From positions 329,223-393,222 of the forward strand of contig JANPWX010000080.1 in assembly GCA_024734555.1 (NCBI GenBank): a stretch of 64,000 nt of DNA, given 5' to 3'. Origin of the DNA: Trochalopteron elliotii. Lineage: Eukaryota > Chordata > Aves > Passeriformes > Leiothrichidae. The notes beneath the pieces are model-generated. The model was not told the origin of the DNA. It worked only from the letters and a program-made list of their open reading frames with translations, and made no database searches. Below, piece by piece: positions 8,191 through 56,456 of the stretch. A program made the translations under genes and the position numbers. The first letter of the stretch is position 1. The number at the start of each line of letters is the position of its first letter.

Positions 8191-10249
8191 TATATGTAAA
8201 AAAATTAATGATCATATTTTGCATTTATTAATTTTTACAATTTGATTATTGTCTAATGATATTTTTGGAAATAGCTTAACATTGGCATCCATCATCTAGG
8301 GTGTGGTGTGCAGATTGTGTCTGTTAGCTGACTCGGAGTAGCTCAGGGTGAACAGATGGTGTGAGTCTGGAAGGGCTCTGCTGCCACTGTAGAGCCAGAG
8401 ATGTCATCAGCTCAGTTCCCCTTTGTGATTGTCAGAACTGCTCTGGTGTTTGGTTGGTTTTTAATGACTGGGTCATTTTATTGCTGTTACGATTAGTGTA
8501 ACTTAGTTACTGCCCTGAGGTAGCAGAAAAGATGGATAATAGAAGAAATTAAACTGGCACTACATTGTCTTAGGTGGATGGGGTGATTAGGTTCAAGTCA
8601 CTATCAAAGGACCAGTGGTTGATTGTTTCCTTACCACAAGAACACTGAATTTTAAAGGTCACAGATCTTAAGCAAGAAGTGCTTAACTATGTTCTTGACT
8701 AATGTTTAACCATCAAGTTTTCTACCCAGAAGTAGTTCTTTTAAGAATTAGTTATTTATGTTGAAATTACCATCGTGGTATATGTTAAGCACTAACTGAA
8801 GCTTGAAGGAAATTTTCCTCAGATCCTTTGGGGTGTTTTTTATCATTCCAAAGTGGCCATAATGTTTTACTACCAGAAACAGACAGGAATCTTGAGTGCT
8901 TAAAAAGTCTTCACCGCTTGGAGATGAATGGTGTCAAAATAAAGTGAATTCATTGGGAAATACTAAACAAGTACAAGTAGAACCACCTGTCCCCAGGTCT
9001 CAGTTAATATGCACAGGCTATTTTAATGCAATGATATTTATGCCAATATCTCAATTCCCAGTAAATGATAAAAAAGCCAATAAAAACCAACTATGGTGTC
9101 TTGTTCTCTGGCTGAGACATGGAAGCACAAAAAAAATAATACTGAACACTGAGAAAGAAACAAGACACCACAGTAGTCGTTCTGTTGCATCCTGGGGTGT
9201 TCAAGTGCACCTTTGGAGATGCAGCATGTGAGTCTGAAAGACTTAAAAAAAGAGAAATGCAAGCTGTGGTGTTACACAGCAAGCAGCAACTCTGTGCCTG
9301 TTGCTCAGGCTGTTCAGTAGCTACAGAAGTTACTTCATGTGCAGCATAGCTAGAAAGGGATTTGGTTTGTGTTCTATATCCTTTCCCTTCCTTTGATTCT
9401 TCTAATCCCTTCTGTTTTGTCCCATGCTGTGGCCAGCAGTGTTCTGTGCAGACAGGGTGGCATGTGCTGGGTGTTCCCAGGGCGGCAGGGTGGCACTTGC
9501 AGGCTGTGTTGGCCGGCTGTGCCCATCACCTTTGCTTGTGCCTCAGCCTGTCTTAGATCAGGCACTGCACAGAGCACCTTTCCTTACCCACCGGTGTACA
9601 GCACAGACAGATGGGCTTTGAAACTGACATAAAGTTTAAGGTGCTGGAGAGATTAAAACCCAAATGCACCCGTGCTTACTAGAGTTCTCTGACAACATAT
9701 AAAAACTCTGTTGAAGCTTTGCCTATGAATTACCAGAAGTATTTTCTTTTAATGGCAGAAATATTTGTGCTAATTTGTAATTCTGCCTTCTGTAACATCA
9801 CTGACTGTGATGGTTAATGTGCCTGATGGTGTGTTTCATTTTCAGATTTTCCTTTATTGTTTTTAAATAAGCATTATTACAGTTGGAAAGTTACACCTGC
9901 AGGATTAAAAATAATTTATTAAGAAAACGCCACAATTTTAATAATTCAGGAATAATGAATCAGATTAATTAGTTCCATTCTGAGAAAAATCAAGGTGGTT
10001 TGTTTACTGCTGCTACTGTTTTGTTTTACCACCTATTTTGATTGCTGTAATTAAAATGGTTCTTCATCTTCTATCTGTTAGTAAGTTAGAAAAGATGGTG
10101 TTAATTCCGGTGTTCGTCGGCTGCAGTTTGTGGGCTTGCTTCATTACTTGAAAGCAACCAGAACTGTATCACGGTGACCCGTTGTAACTGAAGTGCCTCC
10201 AGGAAAGACAAAGTCTTGGTTTTTCCAGTAAAATGACTTTCCGCAGACT
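8191..10249. other. Intergenic DNA between DNTTIP2 and BCAR3
   Basis: I see no gene here. Open frames up to 111 codons (8896-9231) show no recognisable domain or coding signature. A locally GC-richer patch lies at 9425-9615 (CCAGGGCGGCAGGGTGGCAC and similar) without an obvious function. Confidence 0.6.
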
Positions 10250-10330
10250 GTCGTGGAAGCGTAGCGGCCCCACGGGGCTGGCTGTCGGTTCTGACCGTTC
10301 TGGCGGAGCTCGGGCCGGGCGAGCAGGAGC

Positions 10331-10452
10331 AGAGCCCTTCTCCCGCTGCCCGAGGGCGGCAGGGCCGGGAGGAGGAGAGCAGAGCCCTTCTCCCGCTGCC
10401 TAAAGGCGGCAGGGCCGGGAAAAGGAGAGAGAACCCTTGTCCTGCTCCGCCT
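10331..10452 (+). repeat. 50-base tandem repeat in CpG island, about 2.5 copies
   Basis: AGAGCCCTTCTCCCGCTGCC at 10331 recurs exactly 50 bases later at 10381. Both copies are followed by a GGCGGCAGGGCCGGGA stretch; they differ mainly at CGAG versus TAAA. A third, partial and diverged copy (GAACCCTTGTCCTGCTCCGC) starts at 10431. Confidence 0.85.
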
Positions 10453-10636
10453 TCTCGCTGGCGGCGAGGAAGCTTCGTGTCGCTGGGCCGAGCGGACGGC
10501 AGGTTCGGTCAGGGGCGGCTGTGGCCGCCCGCTTCCAGCGTTCCCCAGACCGCCAGGCACGGCGGGAGGCGGGCCCGGAGAGCCTCGCTGACGGGAGAAG
10601 GGCCAGGCCGGCGCACCGGCTACCTGCGGCGGTGAG
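10450..10636 (+). other. BCAR3: Candidate non-coding first exon of BCAR3 (upstream promoter)
   Basis: The end is set by the donor GGTGAG/GTAAGA at 10636/10637; the start is only a guess inside the CpG island. It would splice to the acceptor at 38434/38435. Because that exon has a stop just before its ATG, the first exon would be 5'UTR whatever its frame. No transcript evidence is available here. Confidence 0.4.
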
Positions 10637-10725
10637 GTAAGAGACGGGAGAGCGCGGGGGAGACATTTCCGCCAAAAAGGCGTAGGGGGCGGGGAAAATT
10701 TATTAAAAAAAAAAAAACCAAGAAG

Positions 10726-10730
10726 AAAAA
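10726..10730 (-). terminator. Pol III terminator of tRNA-Arg(TCT)
   Basis: Five T on the minus strand lie nine bases past the tRNA 3' end. A longer back-up T12-13 run lies further on at about 10705-10717. Confidence 0.7.
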
Positions 10731-10739
10731 GAGAAGACA

Positions 10740-10825
10740 CGACTCCGCCGGGACTCGAACCCGGAACCTTTGAATCCCTTCAACCCTCTAGAAGTCCAAT
10801 GCGCTATCCATTGCGCCACGGAGCC
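10740..10825 (-). tRNA. tRNA-Arg (anticodon TCT), with a 13-base intron
   Basis: Read on the minus strand, the gene starts GGCTCCGTGGCGCAATGGAT and ends CCCGGCGGAGTCG. The acceptor stem GGCTCCG pairs with CGGAGTC, and the last G is the discriminator base. The A box (TGGCGCAATGG) is at 10808-10818 and the B box (GGTTCGAGTCC) at 10751-10761. The anticodon TCT occupies 10792-10790 and reads AGA. A 13-base intron, GAGGGTTGAAGGG, fills 10788-10776, directly after base 37 as in all nuclear tRNA introns; without it the loop is CTTCTAA closed by TTGGA/TTCAA. A T5 run at 10730-10726 (minus strand) just past the 3' end is the probable Pol III terminator. The same tRNA lies beside BCAR3 and DNTTIP2 in human, as I recall, so this is a syntenic copy and not a stray retro-copy. 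Confidence 0.97.
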
Positions 10826-13800
10826 ACCTGTTGGAGTTTCCGCACATCGTCCATAGAGCCTGCGCGTGCCGTCACGCATCAGTCCCGAATGCTTCAGCCT
10901 TTCTTTCTCTTTTTTTTTCAGTTTCAGTTTTCCTAACCAACACGAACAGGGTTAGTCGTACACGCTGCAGCGCAAACGAGTCCGCGCGGCAGCCCCTGCG
11001 TGCTGCCTGAGTGCTGCCCACGGCCCGGGTGGGGCCCACGGCTTCCTGCGCAGCTCTCGCCACAGGGCTGCGGCCTCATTTCTTACGGAAGACCGAGTGC
11101 ATCAGTGATCAGTATAAAATATTTGTTGTCATTCCACTCTGGCGTTTCCAGTATTGAGCCTTATGCTCGAGGAATATAATTATAATCTACAATTGCCTTG
11201 TATTGAGGAGCTCTTCCTCCAGATGTCTGTAAATGCTCAGTAGCACCGCCCTCCCCCGTGGATTCAGAAAGAGATTTTTACATAAAAGCTGTAATTCTAG
11301 TCTGAAAGAAGTCCGCGATACTGTTTTGGGTTTGTTTAGGTTTTTTTGTTTTTTTTCTTTAATCAAGAATAGGCATAATAGAAACCCGAAGAGACAAGAG
11401 TATGCGGTTATTCGTTCTTTAACCTTGCCCTCCGGTATATTGCAAGCGGAGCCTGTGGCCTGCTCTGGGAGGGGGCGCGGGGCTGCCGGCACCGGCCCCG
11501 AGGAGAGCTCCGGGCAGTGAGGCCTGTGCAGTAAAACTGTGAGAACCTCGTGCTGCACTTTATCATCATTTAAAAGTACAGGTATCCATAAGAGTGGAGA
11601 AAAGCGTCTGAATAAGCACACCCTAAAATCTGAGGAACAAGGAAGCTAATCACACCGACGTAAAATAAACTGACTGGGATACACACTCCCCGAGGTATTG
11701 CATCCAGGGCTGAGATACCGAGTGTAATGAATAACCGAGGTGACTCAGGCACTCCGGCAGTGTGTCCTGTGATTCCCAGGAAGCAGCTGCTGTGCCTGTG
11801 GCCAGCAGTAAGCCAGAGAGCTCTTGAGCTGCCTGATGACTGAATAGCTCCTGCAATGCTGCCCAGAAAAGGCAGCTGCTGGAAGGGTTCAGCAGTTACA
11901 GCAAGTACCAAACTGGAGGTACAACCCCCAAGCTAACAGATTGTTGTTGAGTCAGAACATTTGTAAACAAACCAAGAATCACTAAGCTGTATAAGATTCA
12001 GAGCAGGTCTGGTCGAATTTACAAACTCTGGGTCTTGCCACAATTGTTCTGTTATGGACAGAACTCTTCCTAGTGCTCCTGGTAATGGAATGCAAAGTCT
12101 GGAAAATTTGACTCCTCAAAGCCCTATACTGCAGAAAAGAAACAGAAGTCTTGTTTTTAAGAACTGAGTTGATCTTCAGAATAATAATCTTAAATTTATA
12201 TTTGTGCAGTTCAAATAAACCTCTTGTTAGTAACTAAGAATCACTGTAAACATCTTGTAGCTTGTGGACACCTGGGCACGTTCATTGTGGGGTGCACTGT
12301 TGGTGCCTCACCAGTGTGATCTGGTAGTGTGGCACCTTTGAACAGCGTGGCACTAAGTGACTGCAGAAAAGAACCAGAAAAGAACCATCCTTTTCTGTCA
12401 CAAGACTGGTTCTGAGAGTGTAAGACTGAAGAATTGTGACACTCACATGATTATTACTTCCTCTCATATTTTCCTTGTGGATAGTTGGTTTATCAAGGCA
12501 GATAAAGGCTGGTTCCATTCATGCAGGACGACCGACTAGGGAAACGTTTGGAATTTTTCCAGAAATGTTTCAAAATATTCAAGTCGATTTGGTTTTTTAT
12601 TGTGTAAACGTAGTCCCCGGTGCGAAGTCCACCTTTGCATTTGCACAGCAGGTGGAGCTACTGCATGAGAAACAGGGCAGCTCACGGGTCATGAACTGAG
12701 GGAATGTAGCCATAGGCAAAAACGACCGATCTGATTAACCTTTGCTGGCGCCTGGACCCAGATCAGTCTTTTGGACTTTCCCTCCTCTAGGACTGTCTGA
12801 AGTCTAGTTCTGTTGCAAGCCGGCTTTCATTTCAGCTCCTCTTCAATTTTATGTTCTTTGTCAAGGAGCAGAAGTTACTTGGAATAGAGTTGTGTTTAGT
12901 TACTGGCACTCAGAAAATTTGCTGAGCTCAATAATGTGCCATTTTGCTAATTTTTAATGGGAGGAGAAACTGAGGTAGGAATATCTTGAATACACAAGTC
13001 AGAAAGTGCATCGAATGGCAGGAAAAAATATTATCATCATATAACAGTCTTCTATTGATTAAAATAAATCTAGATGTTATTTATAAAATTGAAGTGATCT
13101 TTTAGAGACTTTTTACAAAATGGATTTCAACATCAACTTCTGTTACTGTACTGTAGTGCTATGTACTGTATGTCCAATTACTTTTGGTAAGATTTGTGCC
13201 TTAAAACGTATTAAAACAGCAATTTCCAAATTTGCAGGGATTCCACAGATGTTTGTTGGGAGTACCACCACCTTTCTCTAAGAATAAGTGTAATTGATAC
13301 ACTTGTTGAAAGAGGGCAGAGAAGGTTCTCATGCATAGATTACCTAAATGGGACCCTTACATCATCTGTACATTTCAGGGAGGATTATTACAACCCTACT
13401 GCTCTAATGACTCACCTGTGTAGTGCAGCAAGAGAAAGCACTCTTCAGACTGGCAGGAAAAGATGCTGGGATTCACAAAGTCTGAGGATATGGGAAAGAA
13501 CTCTTTCAGGGAAGGTTTCTTCTGGTAATTTACAATTTGATTATTTTTTTTAAATTTATTTTCTTAACATGAAGATACATATTCTGCATTGTAGATGCTT
13601 CTGCATCTCTGCCTTTTCTTCAGTGAAGGTTTTAATTGCCATGTGACTGTAAGGGTATTGGAGAATTTGTTTGTCAGGCTGCCAGCAGGAAGCTGTTAAG
13701 AACCTCTTCCAATTCTCTTAGTTGTGGTTGTTGTTGGACTAATGCATGTTCTGTCCTCTTGAATACGTTTGGGTAGACAGGAGAAGTTCCCAAGAGCAGT

Positions 13801-38434: not shown

Positions 38435-38549
38435 AGTCATAGGCATTGGGAAGGAATAGATAATGAAGTATCTACCCATTTCTAACTGGCTGACCCAGCT
38501 TGGTCTTGCAGAATATTGCACACTCTTTGAACAATATGATGGTATAGAG
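38435..38549 (+). CDS. BCAR3: SAM domain exon A, with start codon
   Basis: Acceptor TTTGTTTTTCAG/AGTC and donor GAG/GTGAGA bound a 115-base exon. TAG at 38457-38459 is in frame two codons before ATG (38463), so this ATG opens the protein; its -3 base is A. The 29 codons give MKYLPISNWLTQLGLAEYCT and LFEQYDGIE, helices 1-2 of a SAM domain with the usual W9, LGL (13-15), Y18 and F22. Reading past the donor meets TAA within nine codons, as expected for an intron. Confidence 0.85.
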
Positions 38550-41500
38550 GTGAGAATTGTCCTTTTTCAATAAAATTCTTGAGAAAATGTTAAGTAAGAT
38601 CTTTAAAGCTACTAAAAAACCAATCAAAACGTGTCTACAAAAGTTTCCATTGTGTTACTCTGAGCATCTGCTGTTCAGACTGGAGTTAACAACAATCTTA
38701 GTTTTGTTCCTTCTTACAAACTTTTTGCTGAAGTTTGAAGAGCAAGCATATTGCATTTGTACTCCTTTATGGTTTTTCTTGGAGGATGATTTTGGAACTT
38801 GGGAGAAGTATGTTGGGTGTTTGAGAAAAGCAGTAGGACCCTCTGACACTGTTGCCAAAGTTGAAAAATCCTTTCTACTGAAATGTGAATTCAACATTAG
38901 TACCAACTTTTGCATTTGGGCAAACCTAGAAAGGAATAAATTAGAAGTAAGAATTATGCAACTCTCTACTTTCATGTCATTAGTTATATATGAGTCATCA
39001 TTTGAGAAAGAATATTACATTCTCAGGCATGGCTGAAGTTCTCCAACAGTGAGAACTTTTAGTTCTTTTAAAACAGTACTAGCTAGTGACTTAAGAAATT
39101 GAGGCTTTCAGTAATTTGAGCACTATATACTCTAAAGCAAATAACATCAGGCTTTGGAAGTGTTTTTTGTTTGAAAGAAAGATTTTAAAATTACAGTTTC
39201 AGAAATAGTAGTTCACACTAGTCAATTGTCTTACTATTTACACAGTGAATCAATCTTATTTTGGAGTCTGAATTGCAAATGTCCATTACAAAAAGCCATT
39301 TTCAGTAACATGACTTGGTAGTAACAAAATACTGTGCGTTCTATGTACCTCTCTTTATCTTATTTACAGTGAAAATAGAGAACAGTAAAAATATACAGAA
39401 ATATATTTTGATATATATTTTTCTATTTGCTCTGAAAATTTTCATCATCAAATGAAGCTTTGCACCTACTTATAAATCAACATCAAACTGAAATCCTGTA
39501 CTGTCTTATAAGTAATGTCTGGAGTTATTCAGCAGCTTATTTTGAAAGGAAAATAGTAATGAGTTTTCAGAGAGAAAGTGGATTAAAAGAACAGCTCAGA
39601 TTTGATTACTCAAATGCATTGTATGGAAATTCTTGTTCTTTGAAACAGTCACAACTCATGTTATCTATTATTACAGTGAATATCCTCTTTATTATACAAA
39701 ACCTTCCTTTCCAAAACCGTTATTCCTATCGGTTCATATTGAGATTTATCTTCCTTCATTAAGTGCAATTGGCATACTAGCACTTTTGGGGATTTTTTTT
39801 TTTTTTTCCCTCAAAGGAGTGATAGTTTTTAGGAACTCTCCAGCTAAGCTGATGAGATTTGTTTTGAGAAAACAATTGAGAGACAAGGAATTAATGTTTT
39901 AAAAGAAAAATACCTCGTTCCTTTGATGACGTATCTCATCATGACAAGGGAGCGTCATATAAAATAGAAATACACTTACATTTGTTCTTACATAACTTAT
40001 GGTACCAGAAACAGCAAATATATCTGAAAGACACTTGTATTCTCCTGTATTAATAGTATAATATTTTCCTTATTCTGGCATTTGCTACAGGACTTATTCC
40101 ATCTTACAGAAGTTGATCTTAGAAAACTGGGAATTGAAAATCAAGGCCACCGAACACACCTCATTTCTAATATCCTGCTGCTTCAGGAGGTAAAACAAAA
40201 CAGAGGTAAGATTTCCATGTTGTCTCCTAAAGACTAAGGAGTGAGCTAAGGCAACCTGAGCTTCTCTGTCACAAAGGATGATAAACAAATACTCTGATTC
40301 AGCCTTGGATACTGCTCTGAATGCAGATCACTGGGGGACTTTACACAGACAATAAGAGGAATTGTTAAACATTAGTTTAACAGTAATCAAACATTCATAT
40401 TTTGGCATGGATTTACAAAATAATGTACACTGTATTTTAGAAAAGGCTTCACTTTTATTTCAGTTTCTGTTGCTCTCTCTGTCTTCATCTTAACAAAACA
40501 CTGTAATGTTAACATACCATAATTGACGGAAGTCTGTGTCACAAATATCTTCCTCATTTGGAAAGATCATATCAGAAGGTCTAAAGCAAGCTAATTTGTG
40601 TACATGCCACCTCATTCCTACTCAGGAGAGGATGAGTGTTTGCACAGTTCAGACCCTTCTTTTCCATTAGGGTCTTTGCCATGAATTAAGACTTGATCAC
40701 TGCATCATTTGTTGCTTTTATCAGCTCAGTATCAAAACTCAACTGAAATTCATGAGTTGGAACAAGCCCTGCAAGACATTCTAGTCTGAGTGGAAGGATA
40801 CAGTGAGAACTTATTCAACTATGACTTGTTGAACTGGGTGTTTTGAGAACTGTTCAAAAGATACTGAGATACAAGTATTATGCATTCTGTCCAGTAATTC
40901 TTCAGATCACTGCCAAATGCTTTTACAAATTTAATGTGTAGCAGTTAGTTAGGTATTTGGCTATCAGTCCTGCCTCTACATTCTCTCGGTCAAGATAAGA
41001 CTTTTGCACCATGTGTGGAAATTGATTAATCATAAAATGTGTTTAGCTACTGAAGTTTTCAGAAGGAACTAGAACTGATTTTGTACAAGTAGGTCACTGT
41101 ATCTCCTCAATGTTTTCCGATAATTAATTTAATAATTACACATCTTCCATGGCTCATAGGTTTGACTTTCTTAAAATATGGATGTAACTATGACGTTTTT
41201 GTAACTGCTACTGTGAACAGATTAGGAAATTATTTCAGTTGATGACTGCAATGATTGCAGTGAAACTGGATGTGTTTCAATTGATATCTGTTTTCATGGG
41301 CATTGGGACTGTGTTTTGTAATCTTTTCAGGTACTGAAGTGTGGAATGTATTACAGCTGTCAATGTAGCACTGTTTATCAGAGGAAAGCTACACTTTTCA
41401 ACCATGTCATTGGCATGGTAAATTGATTTGTAGATAGTTATGCAACATTTCGTTCAACTCACCAGAATGTTCTAACTTATGACTGTTCAGCTTCAGATAT

Positions 41501-44500
41501 GTTCAGCCTACATAAAATCTTGATGTATTGCTGATGACTTCTGTGAATATGAATTTGAGTCAAAAAATTCTTTCTAAATTTTTTTTTTTTTTGGAGGGGG
41601 GGGGTTGTTTGTTTTTTGTTTTTTTTTTTTTTTTGTCTGTCCTCCAGAATCAGATTTACAAAGTGACAGCATGATGCCATTTCAGTTTTGATTTTTCTTT
41701 TTGGCAGTTAATTGCTAGAAGTTTTTAAGCTAAATTCTAGTAAAACTAGTGCTGGTTCATATTTTTATGGGCATTTATCTGGAGTAGTGTTTCCACTCAT
41801 TGTTGGGTTTTGACTAATGATAATTAAGCATATAATTGTATTACATGCTTGAAAAAAATACAGACACATTGATCTCCAAGCTCTGTTTACACTAGGATAT
41901 TTACATCCTCAATAGCTTTGCCTGTGGTGTTAAGGATTTCTGGGAAGGTTGAAAACAGATCAGTTCAGTCAGTCATACATGGGTGCAGACTGGTTTGTTT
42001 TCACAGTAGGGACTAATGGTTGTTATCTGGTCTCCAGCCTATTATGACACAGTTTTGTTTTGTGTCTGTCTTTGACAGAATGCTGTGTCTAGGAGCAAAG
42101 TGCCTAATCAGTTACACTGAAATGCTTGTTTTCCAGCAGTGAACTTTACTGGAGTCAGACATTAGACAAAGCTTCTAAAATTTTCTATGACGCTAAATAA
42201 ATGCTAATGTCCTACTAACTTACTGTATCGGAGCAAAGGCTACCTTACTCTGTTTGATGTTATTTTGAGCTTTAAACAACAGCATTGTGTTTGGTGCTGG
42301 TTCAACAGTTTCCAGAGAGTGCTTCAAGTGATAAGTCACATTAATAAGTAAGAATTTGCGCAGGGTCAAAAGCGACATTAGGTTTTGGGAGTATTCGTGA
42401 AAACATTATCTGTTTTCTAAAATATTATCTTGGTTCTGAAACTACTTTGAACAGGACATGGCTCAGTACATTTGGAATAGATTTGGATTCATCCTGTCTA
42501 ACTCTAGCTACTTGGGCTGTGTTTACACAGTCATTATAACCAAGATCTGTGCATTGACATAATGCCCAACAACACATTAGAGCTGAATGAAACATGTGCA
42601 AATGATCACATATCTGTTGAATTAGGCAGAGTACACAACACGAAGTTCACTGGTTTGATGCTTTTACACCGTTTTTATGGCAGCCAGTGATAGGGAAGTG
42701 AGTAGGACAACTGATTTTTGAGTGGCATTAGCTAATCAGTAGGAAAATAAATATTCAAAATTGTAAGTAGATGTTGAGTGAAAACGTGAAAGAACACAGC
42801 AATCCATAGTGATGCTTTCCTAGAATACTTTCTCAGTCTCTAAACATTTAATCTAACAAAATGTTTCAAGAAGGTAAGAATGGGAAGAGATACAAATATT
42901 CATTCCACAGTCTTCTTGCCTATATCTTGACTTACCTTCTGATGCATGCTGTAGCATATTCTGGATCTTGATGTCCTGCCATCTACACCAGTATCCATTC
43001 ATGTACTCCTCAAGTGCTGTGACTCCCTTGGGATGTATTTTTCATTTTCTGTTCCAGGGAAATTAGAGGGATGAGGCCTGCAACATGCCTGGGCTTGTTG
43101 CAGTGTGGAATCAAGGTGCATCCAAAAATTGTGTACTAGCACTTCTAAGAAAAGCAAAAAACATGGGCTATGCTTCCAGGAATATTCTCAGTGGCTATCT
43201 AGCACCTTTTGGAAATACTTGTGTGGCATCTGAGAAAAGCCAGGAAATTACATATCCTCTTCTATAAAAAGTTTATTGTGGTATGACAAAAATTGGTGAC
43301 CAATCAGGTGTAAGCTGACTCCCGTATTACTCAAAAACTCTTCCTTCCCTGAGCATGAGGCATTGCAACAATCAGCAGTTCAAGACACATCCTGAAAGCC
43401 ACAGCCCAGTACTTGTAGGGTAGTAGTAGGGGAGGGTACTTGTAGTGCTTCTGGAAGGAACTGTGGTTTTCCCAGTATCCTCTAATATAACTAAAGCAGG
43501 ATTTATGCTATGTGGGATTGGCCCAGTGTTATTTAATCATATTGTTTTATGTTTGTTGTATTTAATCTCATTTACCATAGTGTGCTACAGTCTGTAGGAG
43601 TGTGATTCTATTGGTTTCTTATGAACTATAGTAAATTAATAAATCATGCTTCAAATGTGTTGAGGAAATGCACCATGATGTGACCAACTCCTTCAGTCCA
43701 GTAGAAATGGTACCTATCGAGAGGGAAATGGAAACACATAAATGAAAATGTCTATTTTGATACAATAAAAAAAGGCCTTGATTATTGCCAGACATGGAGG
43801 ATATTTCTTTTTTCCCTTTAGAGACATGAATTTAAATACAGCATTGTATTTTAGAATTTATTATCATTTGACTGTTAGAATATTTGTATGCATTTGCAGG
43901 TATTAGTGATGTATGTTTCTATATATCACTAGTTGAGTTATGAGTGGAAAGAAATAGAGAGAGCTAAGAGCTAAGTATTTTTAAGGAGGTGTTCTAAGAG
44001 CTAGAACTTCGTTTTTACAGTAACTTCTTTTACTAAGATGAATTCCAAATAAAAGCATTTTATGGCCTCGTGTGATTTCATTAACATCTTGGAGTGTTTT
44101 TCTCTGAGAGGCAAAAGGTATAAAGGAAATTTCCTTTTTGTCTTGTACAGGTTTTCTTATACAGAGAGTTTTAATAGGATATAGGTTTAGATCTCTTTTG
44201 ATTTTTTTTTATCATACAAAGATGGCCAGACTTACTGCATTTAAATGAAATACATACATTGACATAATTTATTGTAGGTAAATATAAAATAATATGCAAA
44301 ACCTGAATCAGATTTAATGCAATTAATATTTCATAACTTTCTGCTTTTAGATTTTGCATTTAAATCCTTAGATAACTGTTTCTGCCTATGTTGTATTTCT
44401 TGCCATGCTGCAGTAGTATGAAGTTAAATATGAAGTGATTTCTTGTCGTCATATGAAAGACATAAGTTGTGTGGTATTAAGAAGAAACATGAGCAAGCAC

Positions 44501-47500
44501 TACAGAGCCTGAATTGTTCTTGGGATAATATAAATGGAGAGTTCTATCTTCAAAAAAACGTGTAAAATAACTGAGGCACTCTCTTTTGTGATTTTATTAG
44601 ACGACCATTATAGTTAGCATAAAGCCATGACTGGTTTGGCATTGTCAACCACAAATATCTTGCCTTTGTCTCTCAGATAAAGTCCTTCCACACATTCTGG
44701 TGCTTTTGCTCTTTGAAACATTATAAATGCAGCCAGAGTGCTTTGGGGCAGTAGTATGTAGTGTCAACCTGTCAGATTCCAACCTCATGCTAAAGTATGC
44801 TTGTAGCTTTGCCAACAGAGGGAGAGGAGGCTGCTTTGAACACTTCAATTTGTGTGATAGAGGTGGCATTGCTACCTGTGTGGTCTGTTTTGCTCTCACT
44901 GACAGACACAAGGATTTGGAGGTTTTTGCTTTCTCTGTTTGAGAAAGTCAGCAATGTAAATGCTGTTACAGGGTTGTTAACAAACACCTCTGACAGTGCC
45001 ATTTCATCTACTGAAAGTTCCAAATTTGCTTACTGGTGCTTTCTGGCCCTCTGTTTATCCTTGCCTCTACATTAGTTATGTTTGAAATGAAAAACATCTG
45101 TCACAGGCAAAGAGAGGCTGGTAATTCCCCTGCATTTGAGACTTTTTACAGAAACATGGAGAAACAGAAACTTGCAAGAAGTCTTAGATCTACCACTGCT
45201 AAAAGCAAAGAGAGGAAAACAGACCCTCTGGTAAAAGGGGACCCATAAGACCTTGTCCAGCTTCTTTCCAGTTTAAGGTATCATTTACCAAAACTAGTCA
45301 ATAAAAGAAAACTGGATTTAGTGCCATTTTACCAGTGTATTTTTGACTTTTGAAAAAGGTCTGTCTAATCAATGCCAGCACAAGTTCCTTCACCTGATTT
45401 TCAATACCAAACTGAAAGAGGGGGACAGGGACACAACGTATTATTGCTGCAGAATCTGTGTGATTTATTTTTAATAATTTTTAAAATTACTAACTATTTT
45501 TTGTTCAAGATGATAGCTTTCTTGTATTATATCTGACAATGACTGAGTTTATGTAACTCTTCAAACTCTCTTGCTGTGCTACAACATTGCAGAATGATCA
45601 GCTATGGGACATGTCTGCTTGCAAGCTTTTCTGAGGCTGGGGATTGCAAGGTTTCTGAACACCAACTCATAACAGATAACTCTTTGGGAGTTTCTGAAGG
45701 ACCTTGTGTCTCCAGACCTAAGACAGATCAAATAGCAAGAGATGATGTTGGTAGTTTTATTATGGAGGTCTGGATAGGTGCTGACTAAACTTGCCTGTTT
45801 CAGTTGGCAGCCAGGGAGGACATTAGAAAGCACAGTTGCCATAGCTCATAGTTTTCAAAATAAATACTGTCAGATTCCAGGTGCTGGAGCATTTTTCAAT
45901 TCATATTGTCATTTTTATTTGTCCTGATGTCTTTGACTAACTTGAAAATTATCAGCAAATAAACCTAATTCCCAAGAGCTATGATCGTTACTTTTTCTAT
46001 GTGGCATCTGTGGGAGTTAAGGCTTGAGTGTAGCATTTTGTTTGTTTGGGTCTTTTTTCTTGCAGGACAAGTTCATGGTAGCTTTGACTTTTGTTAGTCA
46101 GGGAATCTACAAGAACTGCTGTGTGAGCAATCCACACATGCCACATCCTCATCATATGTAATTATTTCAGCATTTTATCACTGCAGCTGCAGAACAGTGC
46201 TTTTGGAGTAAATGTGTTTTCTCCTGGTTATTTGAGAGAGACTGGAATTCTGACATTTAAGGATAAATTGAAAATTTCCACTTGACACCGCTTCTTGTGC
46301 CCCACTGTTTTCTTTGTTTCTGTAAGCCAAGCACATTTGAAAATGGTGTCAAGAACTGGCAAGTACTCTTATGCCAACTCTTGGCATGATTAAGGCATAC
46401 AAGCTATGGCAGCACAGGTCTTGGGACCTATATCCCAATTGTGTTCCTCCTCACTTAACTGTTCAGTTAGCTGCTTTTTTGGGTGTCTTTGCAGGTGAAA
46501 AGATGCACCTGTACATACTCCTCTCCTTCAGAAAGCAGAAGTCAAGGGTGGCCACAGAAGGCCCCAGCAATGTGTGATGTGTGGCCAGCAATGGCCAGCA
46601 CACTGCTGCTTTCTCAGCCTCCCTCAGATTAGTGTTGCAAAGGACAATGCTCCAGTGCTCCAGTCTGTGGCAAGGTGATACACAGACAGCATGATGCCAT
46701 ATAGATAAACAGATGGCTCAGGGGTATGGCAGGTTAACATGGAATGCTGATGGGGAGGGCTTGACAGAGGTGCTGTGCCCCTTTCAGGACATTGATGCTT
46801 CCAGACTTCATCCCACAGCTCAGTGAACTCATTTCCAAAGTAGATAGAAACTATGAAAACAACAAAAGCTTAGCAATGAGGAATCTAATCTAGTTTAATC
46901 TGGAGTAACTCACAACCAGTGAAGCTACTGTAGGCAGTCGAGTGAATTTTTCCTTCTTGCATCCTGTAGGCAAATTCTCTTTAACAGCTTTGCATCAAGT
47001 ATGTGCAAGGATGGGTTGTGTAAATTGTCAAACATGAAGACAAAGACTAATTTTCAATTTCACCTGAAGACAAAATAAAACTTTAGGAAAAGAAGGTAAT
47101 GACTCATGCAAGTAAGATTAATCACAGTTTAGGCAGGGCTGCCCAGCTACAATTCCATTACTTTGCATGTAGTCATGCTACTAAGGAAGTCACTGCCCCT
47201 TTTCTTGTTCTTAGTCATAAAAAAAATGACAAGCATGACACTACTTCCTATGTAACTACAGTGCCTAAAAATTTCCTGAGTGATTAGAATCAGCCAGCAG
47301 AGACCATCTTATGTGCTAACAGATCAGAGTTTTTGGCATGGTTTGAATTGTCTTACCTGAACTGTGAAACATGGGGCTTAGATAGAGAAGCAAGACATTT
47401 TCCTTTATACAATAAGGAAGGTAATAGTTTGCACTTTTGTAACATCTTCCACTTGATAAGCAGATAGAGTACTACAGTCTTCCCTGTGAAAAATAACTAC

Positions 47501-50500
47501 TGCAGTGATGTACATTACAAAAATGTTAGTATATGTCATACAGGAAGTAGGTGGCTCAGAATACTAGAACGGAATGTGGAAACCAGGCATCCCAACTCCT
47601 CTTTCTGTATTCTCACCCTAATGCAAATTTTCTTGCACTGAACATATTGGTGAGGCATTCTGGTGTCCAACATGAGATCACAGTCTGGTGTTCTTTGGTT
47701 TTTTTTCCCCTCCCCCTGCTCCTTCCCTCCCTCTCCCAAGTATATTTAGAAGAAATTGAGTGGAATATTCTATGGGAAATCTCTACAGATTGTTACTCAT
47801 GCCAGTGAAGTTCTGGAATCTGTCACTGTGCCTGAAACATTTCTGGTACCTCTCTATCCTCAATGCTTTTCACAACCAGCAAGACAAATGCAGGGTGCCA
47901 TCAGCTAATCAAGATTTGGTAGTTTTCCTAGTTTATCAGTAACTCAAATGACAAAGCATTTGGGGAAAAACAATTAACAAAAGAACAGAGTGAGGTTTTG
48001 GTGTGCGGTTAAGCTTTGTTTTATGTGAAATTAGTTTGAATTTAGATCTTAACTTAAAGGCTCTGCTCAGTGTCAATAGGATGCTGTAATTTTTTGTAAT
48101 TTGTGGACAGAAAAATATAGAAGTCTGTCAGCATGCCAGAAGTAGTGACTTACATTTCAACACCAGTGAATAGATCTTTTTGAAGGCTGTGGTTTTTCAC
48201 ATTTACCTCAACTTTTCTGTTTTGGAAGTTGTTGTAAAAGGTGCGTGGCAGGCAACACCAACACTGAGAATACTTCCCTGCTGCTCATGCCTGCCTTAAG
48301 GAACTGATGTTGCTATGGGAAGGGGAACACCAGTCAGAAATGCTACTGTGAGCTTCCTTTACCTTAGTGTACTCGATAAATTTAATTTTCTAATCTTCTG
48401 TCTGCATCCCTGACTAAATATTGGAGCACTACTCTCTGCCTTTATTTTCCTTTCTCTTATTTTACACTAAACTTCATCTTACTTGAGCTTTCTTATGCAA
48501 AGCTTCTACTCATATCTATGAAAACTCCTAGACTTTCCCAAGAATTTTCATCTTCAAATACCTACTTCAGCAACTTATGTGATGGCTAAAGAATCTTGTC
48601 TCGATCAGCTAAATGTTTCTTAAACTCTAGCTATGCTTCAAATGAAGGTCCAGTGTTTTTTTCTGAATTGCTTCATTAAAAAAAAAAAAATTGGTTACTG
48701 TGAGATATTTCAGATAGCTGAGATTCCAAAATTCAGTTTTTTGGACAATGCATAAAATGCCAAACTATAGAGAGGTAGATGTCCTAAGTCTACCCAGTAC
48801 TCAGAGATGTCACTGTGGTAAGACACCATGTGGAATTTTAATCCTGCTGCTGTCACTATTGGATGCTTAACTTGCTTAGTGTAAGAACACCAGAATTCCA
48901 CTGATTTTTTTTTATTATTGGCTTGATAATATGCAGCGGTCCTGGAACATAAAAAATCTGATCCTTAATTGCATTTATCATTTAGATATCTTAGGACCAC
49001 AACTTCAGCAACATTATGTAGTCAAGCTCTGAAGTAGATACATCAGAAGCACTCTATTAAAGCTAGTCCTGCTAAAAATGGAGAAAGGAAATGAAAGGAT
49101 TGAACATCAGAGTGAAATGAAAATAGTGCATGAAGAGAATCTCCCAAAACAGAACCACCATGCAACTAGCAGGGATCAAATATTTAATGTGAAAATCAAT
49201 TAAATATTTGATTAGGGAGAAAAGCATTTGCCTCTGGAAAGCTAATAAAACTAGGATAACAGTGAATAGGCTTGAAAAATGAAATCTTATGAATTCTGAT
49301 GCAATTGAAATTGAAAAAACTGGAGTAACTGTGGTAAAACCAGAGAAATGTTGCCCACGTAGCCTGAAAGATTGAGCCACTGGGAAAGAGACAAATACTG
49401 TGTGAAACTGATCGAGACAGTGCTTTAAAAGTCAACCGAGTGTGCCGTGATTTGTATTAAAGCAACAGCCCTGTGGCTGAGTCAATGGTACAGCTGAAGG
49501 TGCTTGAGGTAATTAGTTGAAAATGAAAGTTCTGTCTATAATTATCTCATTGTTTTGAAGGTATACTTTACAAAGGGAGGGTAAGTGGCCATCTGTTCTG
49601 TTAGTAGCTCCTCATTCTGTACAGCTATTTGACCCTTTGTTGTAGAAAATGCGTTTTATCCCGCCAACCTGTTGCACAAATAACTTCACGCGACTCGGTA
49701 GGACGAGGGGGGCGTCTATCAGCTCAAGTAAATTGTGTTTGTAAAGTACGTAACAAGCTCTGAATCGTCCGTGAACAGGGTGGGTTTAGCAAACTTAATT
49801 TTTGCAGTAGTGCTAATCTGAGACACGAAATTATACAGGCCAAGTTGTTAAACCTAAAAGGGCATCGGGGGGTCACGGCCTGCAAGAGCCGGTGTGCCGA
49901 GGGCTCGGCGAGACCCAGCCCGAGCGGCCCGGAGGGTGTGGCCGGAGCCGTAACTCAGGGCCCGGGGGCTGCGCAGCGCCCGGAGCCGCCTCCCGGCCCA
50001 GGTGCGGGGCTCGTGTGGCGGGACAGCCACGGAACCGGGGCCGGGCTGTGGCGGAACGTGCAGCGAGCGATAAGGCGCTCGTAGGAGGCTCTGGTTGAGT
50101 CACCCTTAAGTAATCGCGAACTGCGCTTCTTTGGGACGGGTTGGTGCTGGCTACGCGCCGGCTCCTACCGCGGCGCAGCCAGACCTTGAGCTCTCCCGGA
50201 GACCGTCCCGGTCCATTTTCTGGCAGCGCTCCGGACCGCTGTTGTTGCGGCTCCGGCCTCCGGCCACCCCTCCCAGCTGCCCGCTCCGGTTCTGCGGCCC
50301 CGAGGGAGGGGCGCGGGCGGGACTCGCTGCCGGGAGATCGCTTCGCCGCCACAGACGCTCCAGCCGCTCCGCAGAAAGCCTGGAGAGAAGCAGCAGTGAT
50401 CAGAGCCGGTAACTGCGGGGAGGGCGTTGAGCTCTCGGGCAGAGAAGGCAGAGTTGGTTTTGTGTGTGCGGGTGTCCCTGTGTCCTCACGCCGCTGTCGG

Positions 50501-53500
50501 GGCAGGGGGCGCGGGAGCCGGGCGAGCCCTGCCTGTGACCGGGCTGGTCTGCGGGCTGCTGGAAATACCATGGCTGTGACAGTGAAGACCGAGACATTGG
50601 ATCCAAGTGCTTAAGTTTTGTGGGAATTGATCCCATGGAAATTTGTTTAGGTATAAAACACTGGTGTGTACTCGAGATAGCGAGATACTTCTCCGAGCAG
50701 AGAGAAAAGACGCTGTGTCCTTTTTTTTAATCTTTGTCTTTTGAAGAGGGGAGAACGCAAAAGCACTTCCTTCTGTCCGAATTTGTGATTTCTGAAAGGC
50801 GGTGTTAGTTCGAAATAATAATGCTGAAAAGGTTTTTTCAGTTAAAGTGGGTTGTTTTCTCTTTTTTTGTGGGAACAGAAGACCAGTGAAAATAAATTGC
50901 TTCCTTTACCAGAGAAGGAACAAAAGGTTGTGTTTTTTAAGCATTGGCTGAAAACCACTTAGATTTGACTGTAACCTTGGTAAAGTTTTCTGTTTCTGCC
51001 AGCAAAATGGGGAGAGAAGGTTTATTTCAAGTCAAGGCTTTGTATTGTTCAGGATTACTGAGCTAACTGATTGGGCAATTACATTTCAGAGATAATTTCA
51101 TGGCCAAATGAAGAAAGCTGTACTTATTATTGAATCATCTTCAATGATCACTTTTTCTTGGCATTTTTTGTAGATATGAAGGCATTCTACATGTGCAAAT
51201 TCACAAAGAAAAGTATAGGGTTTATCTGTTTCTCTCATCTTGAAAAAAAAATTTAAAGATAATTTATCCCGGCCTGTGTGTTTTCTGTTATGTGAGAATA
51301 ATAGTTACAAATAACATTTTAAATAGGCTGACCGATTACAACACAAGGATGTATGCGGGGAGGGTGGAAATTGTGTGGCATATATAAAGAGGGAGAAGGA
51401 GAGCATGAACATTGTGATAGCACTTCAAGACCCTTTGGAAGCACTGACCTGACTAATCTTGTGGGGATGTTTGATGTTTGACAGGCTCATGTTTTTTTCT
51501 GATAGTAGCTTAAAGCCTTTGAACTAGTGCATATGCTTTCTCAATCTATGTCTCTGTATCATAACAGGCTGTAGGTTATTGAACCTTAATACTCTTCTCA
51601 AAGTCCTGTGACATGTTTGCTATAGAAGCTTCTGCATCAGTTTTTCATTACAAAAACAGAAATAGAGGTTGCAGAAAGCTGTTTCTAAACCATTTTGGGG
51701 AACAGAAATCCTTTCTTTTCCGTTACAATAAGGAAAAACACTATGCTGCTTCTAGGGAGACAACATGAAATCTACATTGAATTTGTAATGGCTACAGTTT
51801 GATTGTATTAATTCCTATGATATCTTAACTTTAGAGGCTTTTAAATCATGCTTTTCCTTTTTCCCTTATTCTCTTATTACACACAAAAAAATCTGGGGAA
51901 ATTCATCTGCCTTTTAGTCCTGACCTTGACTTTCTTCATCATTAAGGATGTTCACTTTCTTTTTTTATTTTTTTTCTGTGTGTATCTGCATAGTGCATGC
52001 AAATATGCCAAGTAACTTAGCAGGGAGAGGAGAGTAATGGATCTTCCACTTGTTGAAATTTATTGTTGCTGATTTGAAGGGAGGGAGGGGAGATGGGTGG
52101 GAGAAAATTGTGGAGAGATTTGATGTGGCAGAAGCGAGTAGAGCTTTCACGAAAGTTGACTCCATCTTTTAAATATCTGAGAACACTCTGCTGAATATCT
52201 TAAACCATGTTCATGCCCTCTTAGCTTCACAGCATATATAATGGTAAAGATTGGTGATAACACCAGGTATAAACTCCAGGGATTTTGATCTGAGAATCAC
52301 CCAAAAGCTAGATCAATAAGGCTGTGAGAGAAATGTGGGTCTTTTAATGTCCAAAACTGATTTAGGTGCAACTCTGAGTTTTGAAATAGCTTGAGAGTTT
52401 GATTTGGAATTCTTGAGTTGTTTTTCGGTTTCCTTTTATGAGGTTTCCTCTAGCATGAGCATATACAACCTTGGACTGTTTGCTATGCCATTCATGCATC
52501 TCTGATGCTGAACTTTCCCTCACTTCTCTTCCTCCAATATATTGAAACAAGAAAGTAGAAGCCACTGCCATCGGTTTTGTTATGCTGTGGTATGGAAGGG
52601 GCACTTAATCCTATACCAGTGTCATTTTGAATGAACCATCAGAACACTTCCTCAGACTGTGTGAATATCAGAAAGATTTCGTGGGGACAAGCTGAGCTAG
52701 AAAAGTCTTGTTTGCACCTAGTCAGGAGAAATTTGTATGACTACCAAAGTGTTCTGTTTTGTTAGTTGCTGCATCTTGACAAATAGGAATGTGTACAATT
52801 AAATTTCAGTTCCTTTTGAGCCATTGTCCTGTTACAATTTCTACCATTTCTGTTGTTGACTGCATGGCGGCCAATGCTCAAAGCACACTGTCTCTTAGGG
52901 AGTAAAATTTGCAGGGTTTTTATATCTGGAAAAGTCAAACATTCTTTGAATCATATACTGAAGTATTTGAGACATTCCAGTGTCTTCAGCTGAAGAGGCT
53001 CCCACTTTCCAGTGTTTACATTCAATACAGGAAAACTGGATGGATAGTTTGGCAGGACTTTCCTTACTGAGCTTGTTGTAGTTCTCTGTTAACCTTTATG
53101 AAGAGTACATAGTACAGCAGTGCACAGGCAAGCAGATAATTGTGTGGTGGAAGCTAGCAGATCTGTTGTTCTCAGTTTTGTTTGGGTTTTTTTTTTGTTT
53201 GGGTTGGGCTTTTTATTTGTTTGGGTTTTGTTTTGTGGGGTTTTTGTTTGTTTAGGATTTTTCGAGGGTTTTTTTAAGAGGTTTTGCAGGGAGAATTGTC
53301 AGAAATATCAAAGCTGCACGCACACTTGTGGCTAAGTGTATTGAGAGTTCTTGAATGTAGGTGTTTTTATACTAAGTGTGGAACTCTGCCTTGACTCCTC
53401 AAAACAGTACTCAGGTATGAATTTGAGGATTAGGTATTGAATTTGTAATTCATGTGAGTACTACTTAAAAGAAGCGATGATTAGGTCAACTCTGGGAGTT

Positions 53501-56456
53501 TGGTCTTGATTCTTAAGGGCTTCTTAGGAGTAGGGGTGAAATGGAAAATGCTGTACATCAGGGAGTTGTTAATTTGTTGAAAACTCTCAGACTGTTGGAT
53601 TGAAAACCTGCTGGGTTGATGTAAGAATTACCTTGTGATTGGGTTAAGAGAGTGAATTCTCAGTTTTCTTTGTGGATCCTCAAACATGGAGTGGTTGACA
53701 ATTTCACATCACAGTAAGCCTATTGTGGACTCCTGAGCTATTAAACCAAAGCTTTCTATGGTTACATTTATAACCGTTTGGGTTTGATACCTGCTTGCAG
53801 GTAATGTCCTGTGTTGCATTTCAGCATAGCCATGGGAGCCTTGCAGGAAGGGCTAAGGGCTATACTCTCTCACTGGATAACCTGAACTAAAACAGTTGGA
53901 ATTCAGAGGTTTGGGGGTGGTTTTTAGATAAGCCAATAAGAAAGTACAATAATGAAGTGCAGACTCTCAGCAGGCCCTGATAGGAGAACAACAGGATTTG
54001 TACAGTATGAACCAGCTAGCTTCCAGTTTTTCAGACTCCATAAATGGTGTTTCTTGCTTTTCTGCAGTGAATACACAAAGTTGAGTTTCAAATGATTGTG
54101 AGACTTATAAGAAGCCTTTGGTTCCCTGAATTGTTGTAGGTAATTTATATCATTTTGTTCTAATAACAAAGCTGAATTTACAAGAAACAAGCTCAGTCAG
54201 TTTGCTTTAGCCAGAGGAGGTTGCAGGTTTGTAGTAAGCATTTGCATTCTAGATCTTCCAATCTGTGGACCACTTCTTTTGCTTAGAACAGTTGTAATGC
54301 AAAACTGACTTTGCAGCAATTATTGTGAAAATAATTATGTGATATTTTTAGACTTGCCAAAACTAGCAGAAACTGTGTCCTTGAACCGCATCATAAATGG
54401 AGAGATGATTTAGTATTTCACATCACATCAGTATGATAATTTAGGGCAGAATTTTTGTGAGAATGTGTTTGGGTTTCTTTAGCATTTGGTATTTTATTTG
54501 GATCCACATTACAAAAGTTCTTTGCTAACACCTCAAATCTTTTCTACTCTTTTCATCAAGAGATGTGACCAGAGTCAAACAGGTTCTCCCTAGGCAGAAG
54601 TGCTATTTCTGGAGACTTTTTTTTTTCTACTGTAGTGTATACTGTAGTGTATAGTACTTGTGCTGTGACAGAGACTTGGCAAATTGAAGAGTAAAAAAAA
54701 AAAAAAAATTACTGAGTATTTATTGTAGGACTTCCAATACAGGAGAATTGGGAAGGGATTTTTTGTTGAAGTCTGAGAACCTTATCCAGCTGGTGAATCT
54801 CTGCAGTGCAGCTGGCAGGAAAAAGCAGAATTTTTACATACTTTGAGATCAGCTTTAACATTACTGTAAAAGTAAGCCTGTTATGATAACCTCTGGGTAG
54901 AATCAACAGTAGCTTCAGTGCAGAAACATTTTGATGTAGCTGTGATGCTGAGGTTGGAGAAGGGAGCGGGAGGACTACAGAGGCACCTCTGTTTTCCTTG
55001 CAACACCTGTGCATTCCTCAAAACAGGAGGAATACTTGTGCAGCTGTAAGCAGCTGACTTTTGGCTGCTGTGGGCCTTCAGGGTGCTCATCTTATTTTTC
55101 AGCATGGAACTTGACCGAGGTCAGAACAGATTCCCCCTGTCCATAACTGTTATTTCCAAAAGCACTTTTGCTTTCTGAGTTCATATCAATCTCTGCAGCA
55201 TCTGTGGCTGTTGTAGTTTCTATGGGAAGCACCTGGCTGGCTAACACCTAGGTTATATAATACAGGACTGGTTGCCCTTTAGGTCTGGTGGTATGTTCCA
55301 TACAGTGGCTTTTGCAGGCTAATACAACCACATAGGATAAGGCAGCCTGTCTTCTGCAGTACACTATAAACTGAGCACAGGGCAACATTTTTTAAGGAAC
55401 AGAACTGTAATTTGTTAATGAGCCTGAAGTGTTTGTCTCACTTCTGCTCACACTAACAGAAAAACCTGTACTGTATGGCAGACTGCAGTTGATTGTACCA
55501 GAGACTGACAGCTATGCAAATCTCTGTGTCAACAGCGATTTGAGCCAGCAGGCTGGACATGCTGAAGAGGAGAATTCCAGTAATCTGCTCCTGCCCTTAT
55601 CTCTTGGGTAGAGCCGTTTAGTTTACAGCCTGTTAGAAATATGTGACCAGTTATCTGCTAGATTTATTACTTGAGCAAGACTCCTTAGCAACAGGTTTTT
55701 CCTCACAGTGTGCCAACTACTGGGTTTAAAAACATAATTCCTCCAAACCAAGCTGTAGTGTCCTTTATTTTTTGACAAAATGTTCTTAAAACTTTGCTTG
55801 TTGTCAGTGGTTGAAAGTTGATGTCTAGGTCTACAAAGGATGCGAAAAAGAAAAAAAGAGAAACTCTATGGATAAAAATGGAAAATTGTTCAGGGCATGT
55901 TTGTCCAGACTGGTTGTTTTTTTGTTGTGACCTTTAAACATATATAAAGTTATATACATGTGTGCTTGATGTGCATTGGGACCAGCGTGTGGTCTTGAGG
56001 TATCTGACTGCCTCAAAGCAAAGCAAAAGTTCAGTTTCAGATACCTTTGTTAGTCATGCTACTAAACTTCCTTCAAGTAAGGGCTTTGATGATTGATATA
56101 CAGTAAGAAATCTTGGTTTTGTTTTTTCCAGAACCAAAAATGATAGCTGCAGGAAAATATTCAAGTCTTCCCAGAAACAGCCCAGTGAACCACCAGTTCT
56201 CCTTAGCTTCTTCCATGGACCTTTTGACCACAAAACCTTCACCGGCTGAGCATCACTCAAACTCCTTCCAAGGCATCTCTATCCATGGCACTCTCCCCAG
56301 GAAGAAGAGGGGGACAGTTCCCCCTAGGTCTTGTGATATGTTTAGCCACGTGGGAACGTTGCCTTACACCAGAGCGCGGCAGCAGCCACCTTTTGTACAG
56401 GATGTTATAGAAGAGTACCCTCCAGAAAATGGAAAGAGCAGCCAACTCCATGCCAG
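38463..56456 (+). CDS. BCAR3: SAM-BCAR3: BCAR3 isoform with an N-terminal SAM domain (3' part outside window)
   Basis: Proposed spliced CDS: 38463-38549, 40091-40205 and 56132-56456, continuing beyond the window. The first two parts code for a full SAM domain (residues 6-62); the split codon 68 (G/AA, Glu) and PK then lead straight into the usual BCAR3 start, now Met71. Phases are 0, 1 and 2, all introns are GT-AG, and there is no stop. BCAR3 is a cytoplasmic adaptor: its SH2 domain and C-terminal Cdc25-like domain, both encoded further downstream, link receptor signalling to p130Cas and cell migration. A SAM domain would add a protein-interaction or oligomerisation surface. The SAM exons themselves are seen clearly. 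That they join BCAR3 is an inference from strand, order, lack of another acceptor gene and phase match. Confidence 0.7.
38550..40090 (+). other. Intron between the SAM exons
   Basis: This is a 1541-base AT-rich intron. A 159-codon open frame at 38557-39036 is not in the frame of exon A and shows no family features, so it is taken as chance. A T-run lies at 39788-39808. Confidence 0.75.
40091..40205 (+). CDS. BCAR3: SAM domain exon B
   Basis: Acceptor TTTGCTACAG/GACT and donor AGAG/GTAAGA bound 115 bases: 38 codons and one base. It codes for DLFHLTEVDLRKLGI, then ENQGHRTHLISNILLLQE and a basic VKQNR. These are the middle and last helices of the SAM fold, with the hallmark LTE-DL--LGI and GHR---L residues. 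It enters in phase 0 from exon A and leaves in phase 1, the phase required by the exon at 56132. Confidence 0.88.
40206..49859 (+). other. BCAR3 intron after SAM exon B, up to the second CpG island
   Basis: AT-rich intron without a recognisable gene. It holds a T/G homopolymer tract at 41579-41634. Open frames near 44645-45248 overlap on several frames and strands and carry no recognisable domain. Confidence 0.55.
41579..41634. repeat. Poly-T / poly-G / poly-T low-complexity tract
   Basis: About 14 T, then GGA and nine G, then T-runs broken by single G. It could be the A-tail remnant of a minus-strand retrocopy, or simple slippage. Confidence 0.85.
49860..50600 (+). promoter_or_regulatory. 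BCAR3: CpG island, probable internal promoter of canonical BCAR3
   Basis: A 700-base GC- and CpG-rich island starts abruptly at about 49865 in AT-rich intron. It contains a perfect AP-1 word TGAGTCA at 50096-50102. A plausible donor, CCG/GTAACT, lies at 50408/50409, and a TATAAAA word lies at 50652-50658 on the downstream edge. It lies 5.5 kb ahead of the exon with the usual BCAR3 ATG and behind the SAM exons, so transcripts begun here would lack the SAM domain. Open frames inside it (up to 232 codons on the minus strand) reflect GC-rich DNA. Confidence 0.7.
50120..50408 (+). other. BCAR3: Candidate 5'UTR exon from the internal BCAR3 promoter
   Basis: Only the 3' end is suggested, by CCG/GTAACT at 50408/50409; the start is approximate. 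It would splice to 56132, where AACCAAAA precedes the canonical ATG. An alternative donor is TTTAG/GTATAA at 50650/50651. Confidence 0.3.
50660..56131 (+). other. BCAR3 intron between internal promoter and canonical first coding exon
   Basis: AT-rich intron, no recognisable gene. It contains a strongly T/G-skewed low-complexity tract at 53174-53279 and an A-run at about 54692-54708. It ends in the acceptor GGTTTTGTTTTTTCCAG at 56131. Confidence 0.6.
53174..53279. repeat. T/G-only low-complexity tract (GTTT/GGGTTT-like)
   Basis: For about 100 bases the plus strand is almost only T and G, with repeated GTTTGGGTTTT and TTTGTTTG words. There is one CG (TTTTTCGAGG) near the end. Confidence 0.85.
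56132..56456 (+). CDS. BCAR3: BCAR3 first canonical coding exon (N-terminus)
   Basis: The acceptor is at 56130-56131 and the donor CCAG/GTACGT at 56456/56457 (phase 2). The canonical ATG is at 56140, with A at -3, giving 105 complete codons. The N-terminus reads MIAAGKYSSLPRNSPVNHQF and then LASSMDLL; further on come SIHGTLPRKK and FSHVGTLP, matching the human BCAR3 N-terminus motif by motif. The human protein begins MAAGK; here an extra Ile follows Met. The segment is the unstructured, Ser/Pro-rich lead before the SH2 domain. The eight bases before the ATG are also open in the frame coming from the SAM exons (EPK). The next exon, leading to the SH2 domain, is not in the window. Confidence 0.95.

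What the first reader, a model, noticed from the sequence alone, without database searches (positions are those of the whole stretch)
38435..56456. Hidden SAM-domain exons that splice in frame into BCAR3
Seen: two 115-base exons with good splice sites code for a complete SAM domain with its own ATG behind an in-frame stop. Exon A to B is phase 0; exon B ends in phase 1. The exon with the usual BCAR3 start accepts phase 1 as G/AA CCA AAA ATG, open through the 5'UTR bases. Known: the BCAR3/SH2D3 (NSP) family is usually described as SH2 plus a Cdc25-like Cas-binding domain, without SAM. Inferred: the locus makes a SAM-SH2-Cdc25-like protein with 70 extra residues. A SAM domain could bring oligomerisation or a new partner to the Cas complex. 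I cannot say whether such isoforms are already in databases.
Basis: partly seen in the sequence, partly recalled or inferred. Interest (0 to 1): 0.88.

Follow-up and report, generated by a model that had tools for sequence, protein, structure and literature searches.

The report
SAM-domain form of BCAR3
Two small exons upstream of the usual start of a bird's BCAR3 gene encode a complete SAM domain; a matching longer BCAR3 protein is already listed in databases for species from sharks to songbirds, the papers found describe only the shorter form, and the extra domain is predicted to let this cell-adhesion adaptor dock onto SAM-bearing partners, possibly Eph receptors.

Summary
Exons A (38435-38549) and B (40091-40205) encode a complete SAM domain (Pfam SAM_1, 47 bits) and join in frame to the BCAR3 start exon C (56132-56456). 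I followed the gene 37 kb beyond the window and assembled an unbroken 895-residue SAM-SH2-Cdc25-like protein. It is not hidden: the same architecture is annotated as BCAR3 (often isoform X1) in passerines, falcon, emu, turtles, gharial, lizard, sturgeon, teleosts, saw shark and rays, 62 SAM-bearing clusters. One record lies on a 3406-base contig, too short for the gene's introns, so most likely spliced RNA. The SAM is about as conserved between finch and cartilaginous fishes (66%) as the Cas-binding domain (64%). I found no paper that describes it, and no mammalian or amphibian member, with limited reach. Best mechanism, inferred: an acidic mid-loop with a near-invariant tyrosine, as in the Eph-binding SAM of SAMD5, docks the end-helix of a partner SAM, plausibly an Eph receptor; self-polymerisation looks less likely. 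The isoform is solid; the partner is a hypothesis.

The parts
38435..38549 (+). Exon A: 28 bases 5'UTR with in-frame TAG, then ATG at 38463 and SAM residues 1-29
   Evidence: tblastn of orthologous SAMs 63-100% identity in the six queries printed
40091..40205 (+). Exon B: SAM residues 30-67, ends in phase 1
56132..56456 (+). Exon C: joins exon B as G/AA CCA AAA ATG; holds the usual BCAR3 start at 56140; corresponds to the start-codon exon of mouse AND-34
   Evidence: mouse exon 2 in PMC2666772 (passages)
38550..40090 (+). Intron A-B, GT-AG, phase 0
40206..56131 (+). Intron B-C, GT-AG, phase 1; contains the proximal CpG island
49601..50800 (.). CpG island, inferred proximal promoter for the SAM-less isoform
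   Evidence: GC 0.57-0.72, CpG o/e 0.83-0.97; promoter role inferred
10001..11100 (.). CpG island, a candidate distal promoter for SAM-bearing transcripts
   Evidence: GC 0.56-0.68, CpG o/e 0.84-1.07; promoter role inferred, no transcript start seen

Best explanation
Exons A and B encode a complete SAM domain that is predicted to be spliced in frame onto BCAR3 in this bird, as annotated in orthologues from cartilaginous fishes to finches, and that likely works as a docking face for a partner SAM domain such as that of an Eph receptor. Shown: the SAM coding sequence, the compatible phases and splice sites, the unbroken 895-residue frame, the orthologues and one transcript-sized contig. Inferred: transcripts with the SAM start upstream of 38435 (perhaps at the 10-11 kb CpG island), while SAM-less transcripts start at the 50 kb island. 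Inferred: the acidic mid-loop Y25-D26-x-x-E29-D30...E36...D38 receives the basic end-helix of a partner SAM, as in SAMD5/EphA5 and SHIP2/EphA2, so that BCAR3 brings bound Cas to the partner receptor while its SH2 domain reads phosphotyrosine. I put about 0.95 on the isoform being real and conserved, about 0.5 on mid-loop docking, and about 0.3 on Eph receptors as the partner.
Confidence: 0.5

Rival explanations
1. The SAM makes BCAR3 self-associate head to tail and so clusters Cas complexes at adhesions.
For: An acidic mid-loop is one half of what a SAM polymer needs; passerine and falcon members have Gly at the start of helix 5, 6 of 25 rows, the residue that Eph end-helices need.
Against: 19 of 25 rows have V, I, T, L or M at that place, which the published structures say is too large for this interface. 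Where the EphA2 end-helix has Lys-Arg, BCAR3 has Thr/Ala/Leu/Ile/Val and then His in 21 of 25 rows.
Confidence: 0.2
2. The SAM acts inside the protein, for example by masking the SH2 or Cdc25-like domain, and the distal promoter merely chooses a restrained form.
For: A SAM is recorded as an autoinhibitory switch in DLC1 (PMC12383349, passages). Helix 5 runs on into the exon C residues (47-73).
Against: The model gives no confident contact between SAM and other domains, but it is too poor to exclude one (pTM 0.23). The stretch at residues 100-180 is poorly conserved (33% finch to cartilaginous fishes).
Confidence: 0.15
3. The SAM exons belong to another transcript (a separate small SAM gene or a terminal transcript) and the join to BCAR3 is a gene-model artefact.
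For: Exons A and B lie about 16 kb upstream of exon C, beyond a CpG island. The orthologues are mostly automatic gene models.
Against: The residues around the join are alike in 25 of 25 aligned members (E or D, any, K or R, M); one 3406-base contig carries the whole coding sequence.
Confidence: 0.03
4. The longer isoform is real but of little consequence, a minor N-terminal variant.
For: SAM-less forms are also annotated in the same birds (for example P0058 beside P0004). The two BCAR3 papers whose passages I read describe mammalian BCAR3 without a SAM.
Against: Conservation of the SAM about equals that of the Cas-binding domain between finch and cartilaginous fishes.
Confidence: 0.12

Closest known systems
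BCAR3 / AND-34 / NSP2 of mammals
   Same: Same gene: the C-terminal domain of the finch orthologue P0001 is 76% identical to the solved BCAR3 domain 3t6a; same SH2, linker and Cdc25-like domain; start-codon exon and SH2 exons correspond to mouse exons 2, 4 and 5 (exon 5 is 446 nt in mouse, the matching exon 443 here).
   Different: 70 extra N-terminal residues with a SAM domain, from two exons that the passages of PMC2666772 on the mouse gene do not mention.
BCAR3 isoform X1 gene models of birds, reptiles and fishes (NCBI, UniRef)
   Same: Same architecture, same start and same join; the zebra finch SAM (P0001) differs from this one at one residue of 66.
   Different: Nothing of substance; this locus is one more orthologue.
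SAM domains of SAMD5, SHIP2, ANKS1A/Odin and Caskin1 that bind Eph receptor SAMs
   Same: SAM fold; aromatic residue and acidic residues of the mid-loop.
   Different: Different host proteins; no Phe at the cation-pi position; binding to an Eph receptor not tested.
SH2D3C / SHEP1 / NSP3
   Same: Paralogue; the one other NSP gene seen in this genome, on contig C206 (that it is SH2D3C is recalled). The name SHEP records Eph-receptor binding.
   Different: No SAM found in 20 kb upstream of its SH2 exons; exons further upstream were not examined.

Membership tests
BCAR3 / NSP family adaptor | SH2 domain | tested here: met
   Pfam SH2 in 25 of 25 orthologues scanned; SH2 exons E and F present in this genome
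BCAR3 / NSP family adaptor | C-terminal Cdc25-like domain that binds Cas | tested here: met
   Domain: Pfam RasGEF in 25 of 25; match of finch P0001 to 3t6a at 76% identity. Cas binding itself not testable here
BCAR3 rather than SH2D3C | Closer to BCAR3 than to NSP3 | tested here: met
   finch P0001: 76% to 3t6a (BCAR3) against 50% to 3t6g_C (NSP3); the NSP paralogue of this genome lies on another contig
SAM domain (PF00536/PF07647) | Profile score over the curated cut-off | tested here: met
   47 bits against 23, and 42.6 against 20.5
SAM domain (PF00536/PF07647) | Five-helix SAM fold | tested here: met
Eph-binding effector SAM (SAMD5/SHIP2 kind) | Acidic mid-loop with Trp/Phe/Tyr | tested here: met
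   Y25 in 24 of 25, E29, D30, E36 in 25 of 25; aligned with SAMD5 Tyr27
Eph-binding effector SAM (SAMD5/SHIP2 kind) | Measured binding to an Eph SAM | not testable with these tools
   needs ITC or pull-down
Polymerising SAM | Complementary end-helix and mid-loop on one domain | tested here: inconclusive
   mid-loop acidic, but end-helix not Eph-like in 19 of 25 rows; by sequence only

The most novel reading that the evidence does not exclude
The ancestral jawed-vertebrate BCAR3 was a SAM-SH2-Cdc25-like adaptor that coupled Cas to Eph receptors by SAM-SAM docking, and mammals, the source of the functional work, carry a derived form that lost the SAM and with it a direct receptor link.
Probability: 0.25. 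Interest if true: 0.75.

Novelty: new variant of a known kind. Interest (0 to 1): 0.5.

Why it matters
In the papers I saw, BCAR3 is studied as a Cas partner in migrating mammalian cells and in mice, as an SH2 plus Cdc25-like protein. If many other jawed vertebrates make a form with a conserved SAM domain, then fish and bird models may not carry the same protein as mammals, and a second docking site may be missing from the mammalian picture. The gap between what databases list and what papers describe is easy to close: the prediction names one tyrosine and a short list of partners. Mouse AND-34 loss ruptures the lens (PMC2666772, passages), and so does loss of ephrin-A5 or EphA2 (PMC3924825, passages); that is a parallel only, as the mouse form as described has no SAM.

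Tried and rejected
Literature: BCAR3 with 'SAM domain' gave 2 papers; I read passages of one (PMC12383349), where the SAM belongs to DLC1 and BCAR3 is a gene-signature entry; the other (PMC6844070) I saw only in the listing. BCAR3, SH2D3C and 'sterile alpha motif', two of three, gave 17 papers, seen as a listing, no title on this. NSP family and evolution (20 of 27 listed), AND-34, SHEP1, NSP3 with SAM terms (25 of 682 listed) and BCAR3 with zebrafish, chicken or Xenopus (20 of 12,498 listed, none of the 20 holding BCAR3) showed no description of a SAM in BCAR3. Only open-licence papers are held, and most listed papers were not opened.

Mammals and amphibians: no such protein in the three listings, but one search listed 120 of 178, and the turtle query found none of the fishes that one search then found, so reach is limited. 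The turtle I chose has an atypical mid-loop (YNGVEDI), which weakened that search. Loss in mammals is an inference from these listings plus the mouse gene as described; no mammalian genome could be searched.

SAM in the paralogue: none in 20 kb upstream of the SH2D3C-like gene (589 of 20,000 bases N). A SAM split over exons can be missed: the whole-genome SAM_1 scan missed the BCAR3 exons themselves (52 matches, none on C72).

Structure: the full-length model is poor outside residues 1-70, so I drew nothing about domain contacts from it. I saw no other BCAR3 exon in 56457-64000; the next is at 69060 in coordinates run on past the window. No 5' exon upstream of exon A could be named without transcripts.

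Full report
What is in the window. Exon A (38435-38549) and exon B (40091-40205) are as described: 115 bases each, GT-AG sites, ATG at 38463 behind an in-frame TAG, A to B in phase 0, B ending in phase 1 and exon C (56132-56456) accepting it as G/AA CCA AAA ATG. The spliced sequence scores 47 bits to Pfam SAM_1 (cut-off 23) and 42.6 to SAM_2 (cut-off 20.5). In the whole genome of 1.04 Gb, the 175-residue query finds only these three exons at E up to 0.001.

The whole gene. The window is G000:C72:329223-393222. Thirteen coding exons, all with AG acceptors and the first twelve with GT donors, give an unbroken 895-residue protein that ends about 37 kb beyond the window. Its exon of 443 bases corresponds to mouse exon 5 of 446 (PMC2666772, passages). 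In the zebra finch orthologue the C-terminal domain is 76% identical to solved BCAR3 (3t6a) and 50% to NSP3. One NSP paralogue lies on contig C206.

It is already in databases. A search restricted to residues 1-135 listed 120 of 178 matches; 41 carry the SAM. A turtle SAM query listed 37, all with SAM and all seen before; a sturgeon SAM query listed 26, all with SAM, 21 of them new. The union is 62 clusters: passerines, falcon, gull, owl, emu, turtles, gharial, anole, sturgeon, eels, shad, catfishes, carps and Danio, salmon, stickleback, pufferfish, bony-tongues, saw shark, devil ray and sawfish among them. Many are named BCAR3 isoform X1; X numbers do not rank abundance (recalled). No mammal or amphibian appeared, with the limits on reach told under Tried and rejected.

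Splicing evidence. P0003 (source tag lgn, which I take to be the Logan assemblies of public reads; the tool does not explain it) is an 893-residue SAM-BCAR3 on a contig of 3406 bases. The exons span about 63 kb here, so such a contig is most likely spliced RNA; an intact retrocopy is the less likely alternative. It differs from the NCBI zebra finch model at 3 residues and from the UniRef one at 5, so it is a separate sequence. This is one record, not a junction count, and not from this bird: its SAM matches the finch.

Conservation. In an alignment of 25 of the 62, the mean identity of finch with one saw shark and two rays is 66% in the SAM, 64% in the Cdc25-like domain, 76% in SH2 and 33% and 44% in the two linkers; between finch and two turtles it is 74%, 81% and 91% for SAM, Cdc25-like and SH2, so there the SAM is the least kept of the three. 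MK at the start is invariant, as is the Met of the usual start; the join codon is E in 23 of 25 and D in 2. All 25 have SAM, SH2 and RasGEF by Pfam.

Regulation, inferred. Exon A has an acceptor, so a non-coding exon should lie upstream. Two CpG islands, 10.0-11.1 kb and 49.6-50.8 kb, lie before exon A and between exons B and C. I infer that the choice of promoter decides whether the SAM is included; no transcript start was seen.

What is known in print. [quoted passage not shown] PMC8266394 writes of the SH2 and CDC25H domains of BCAR3 (passages). None of the papers listed by my five searches on this showed a SAM in BCAR3. So the architecture is listed by automatic annotation but, as far as these searches reach, undescribed.

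Verdict. Novelty is a new variant of a known kind; the interest is that a conserved domain of a well-studied adaptor seems to be missing from its literature, with a test that a single tyrosine can decide.

Noticed in passing
window 691-2436 (+): A 581-residue open frame upstream looks like the large exon of DNTTIP2 (name recalled; Pfam gave no match), which would keep the DNTTIP2-BCAR3 order known from mammals (recalled).
   Followed up: no
window 10739-10826 (-): A tRNA-Leu gene lies inside the CpG island at 10.0-11.1 kb.
   Followed up: no
orthologues P0030, P0039, P0042: Some annotated bird BCAR3 isoforms begin at or within exon B, so they would carry only the second half of the SAM; their first exon was not identified in the window.
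   Followed up: partly
window 50449-50460 (+): The reading QSWF in the proximal CpG island resembles the MQSWF start of a Geospiza isoform (P0045); a four-residue match may well be chance.
   Followed up: no
P0028, Ural owl: Both the mid-loop tyrosine (Cys) and a conserved helix-5 His (Gln) are changed in this one bird, a possible natural loss of the docking face.
   Followed up: no
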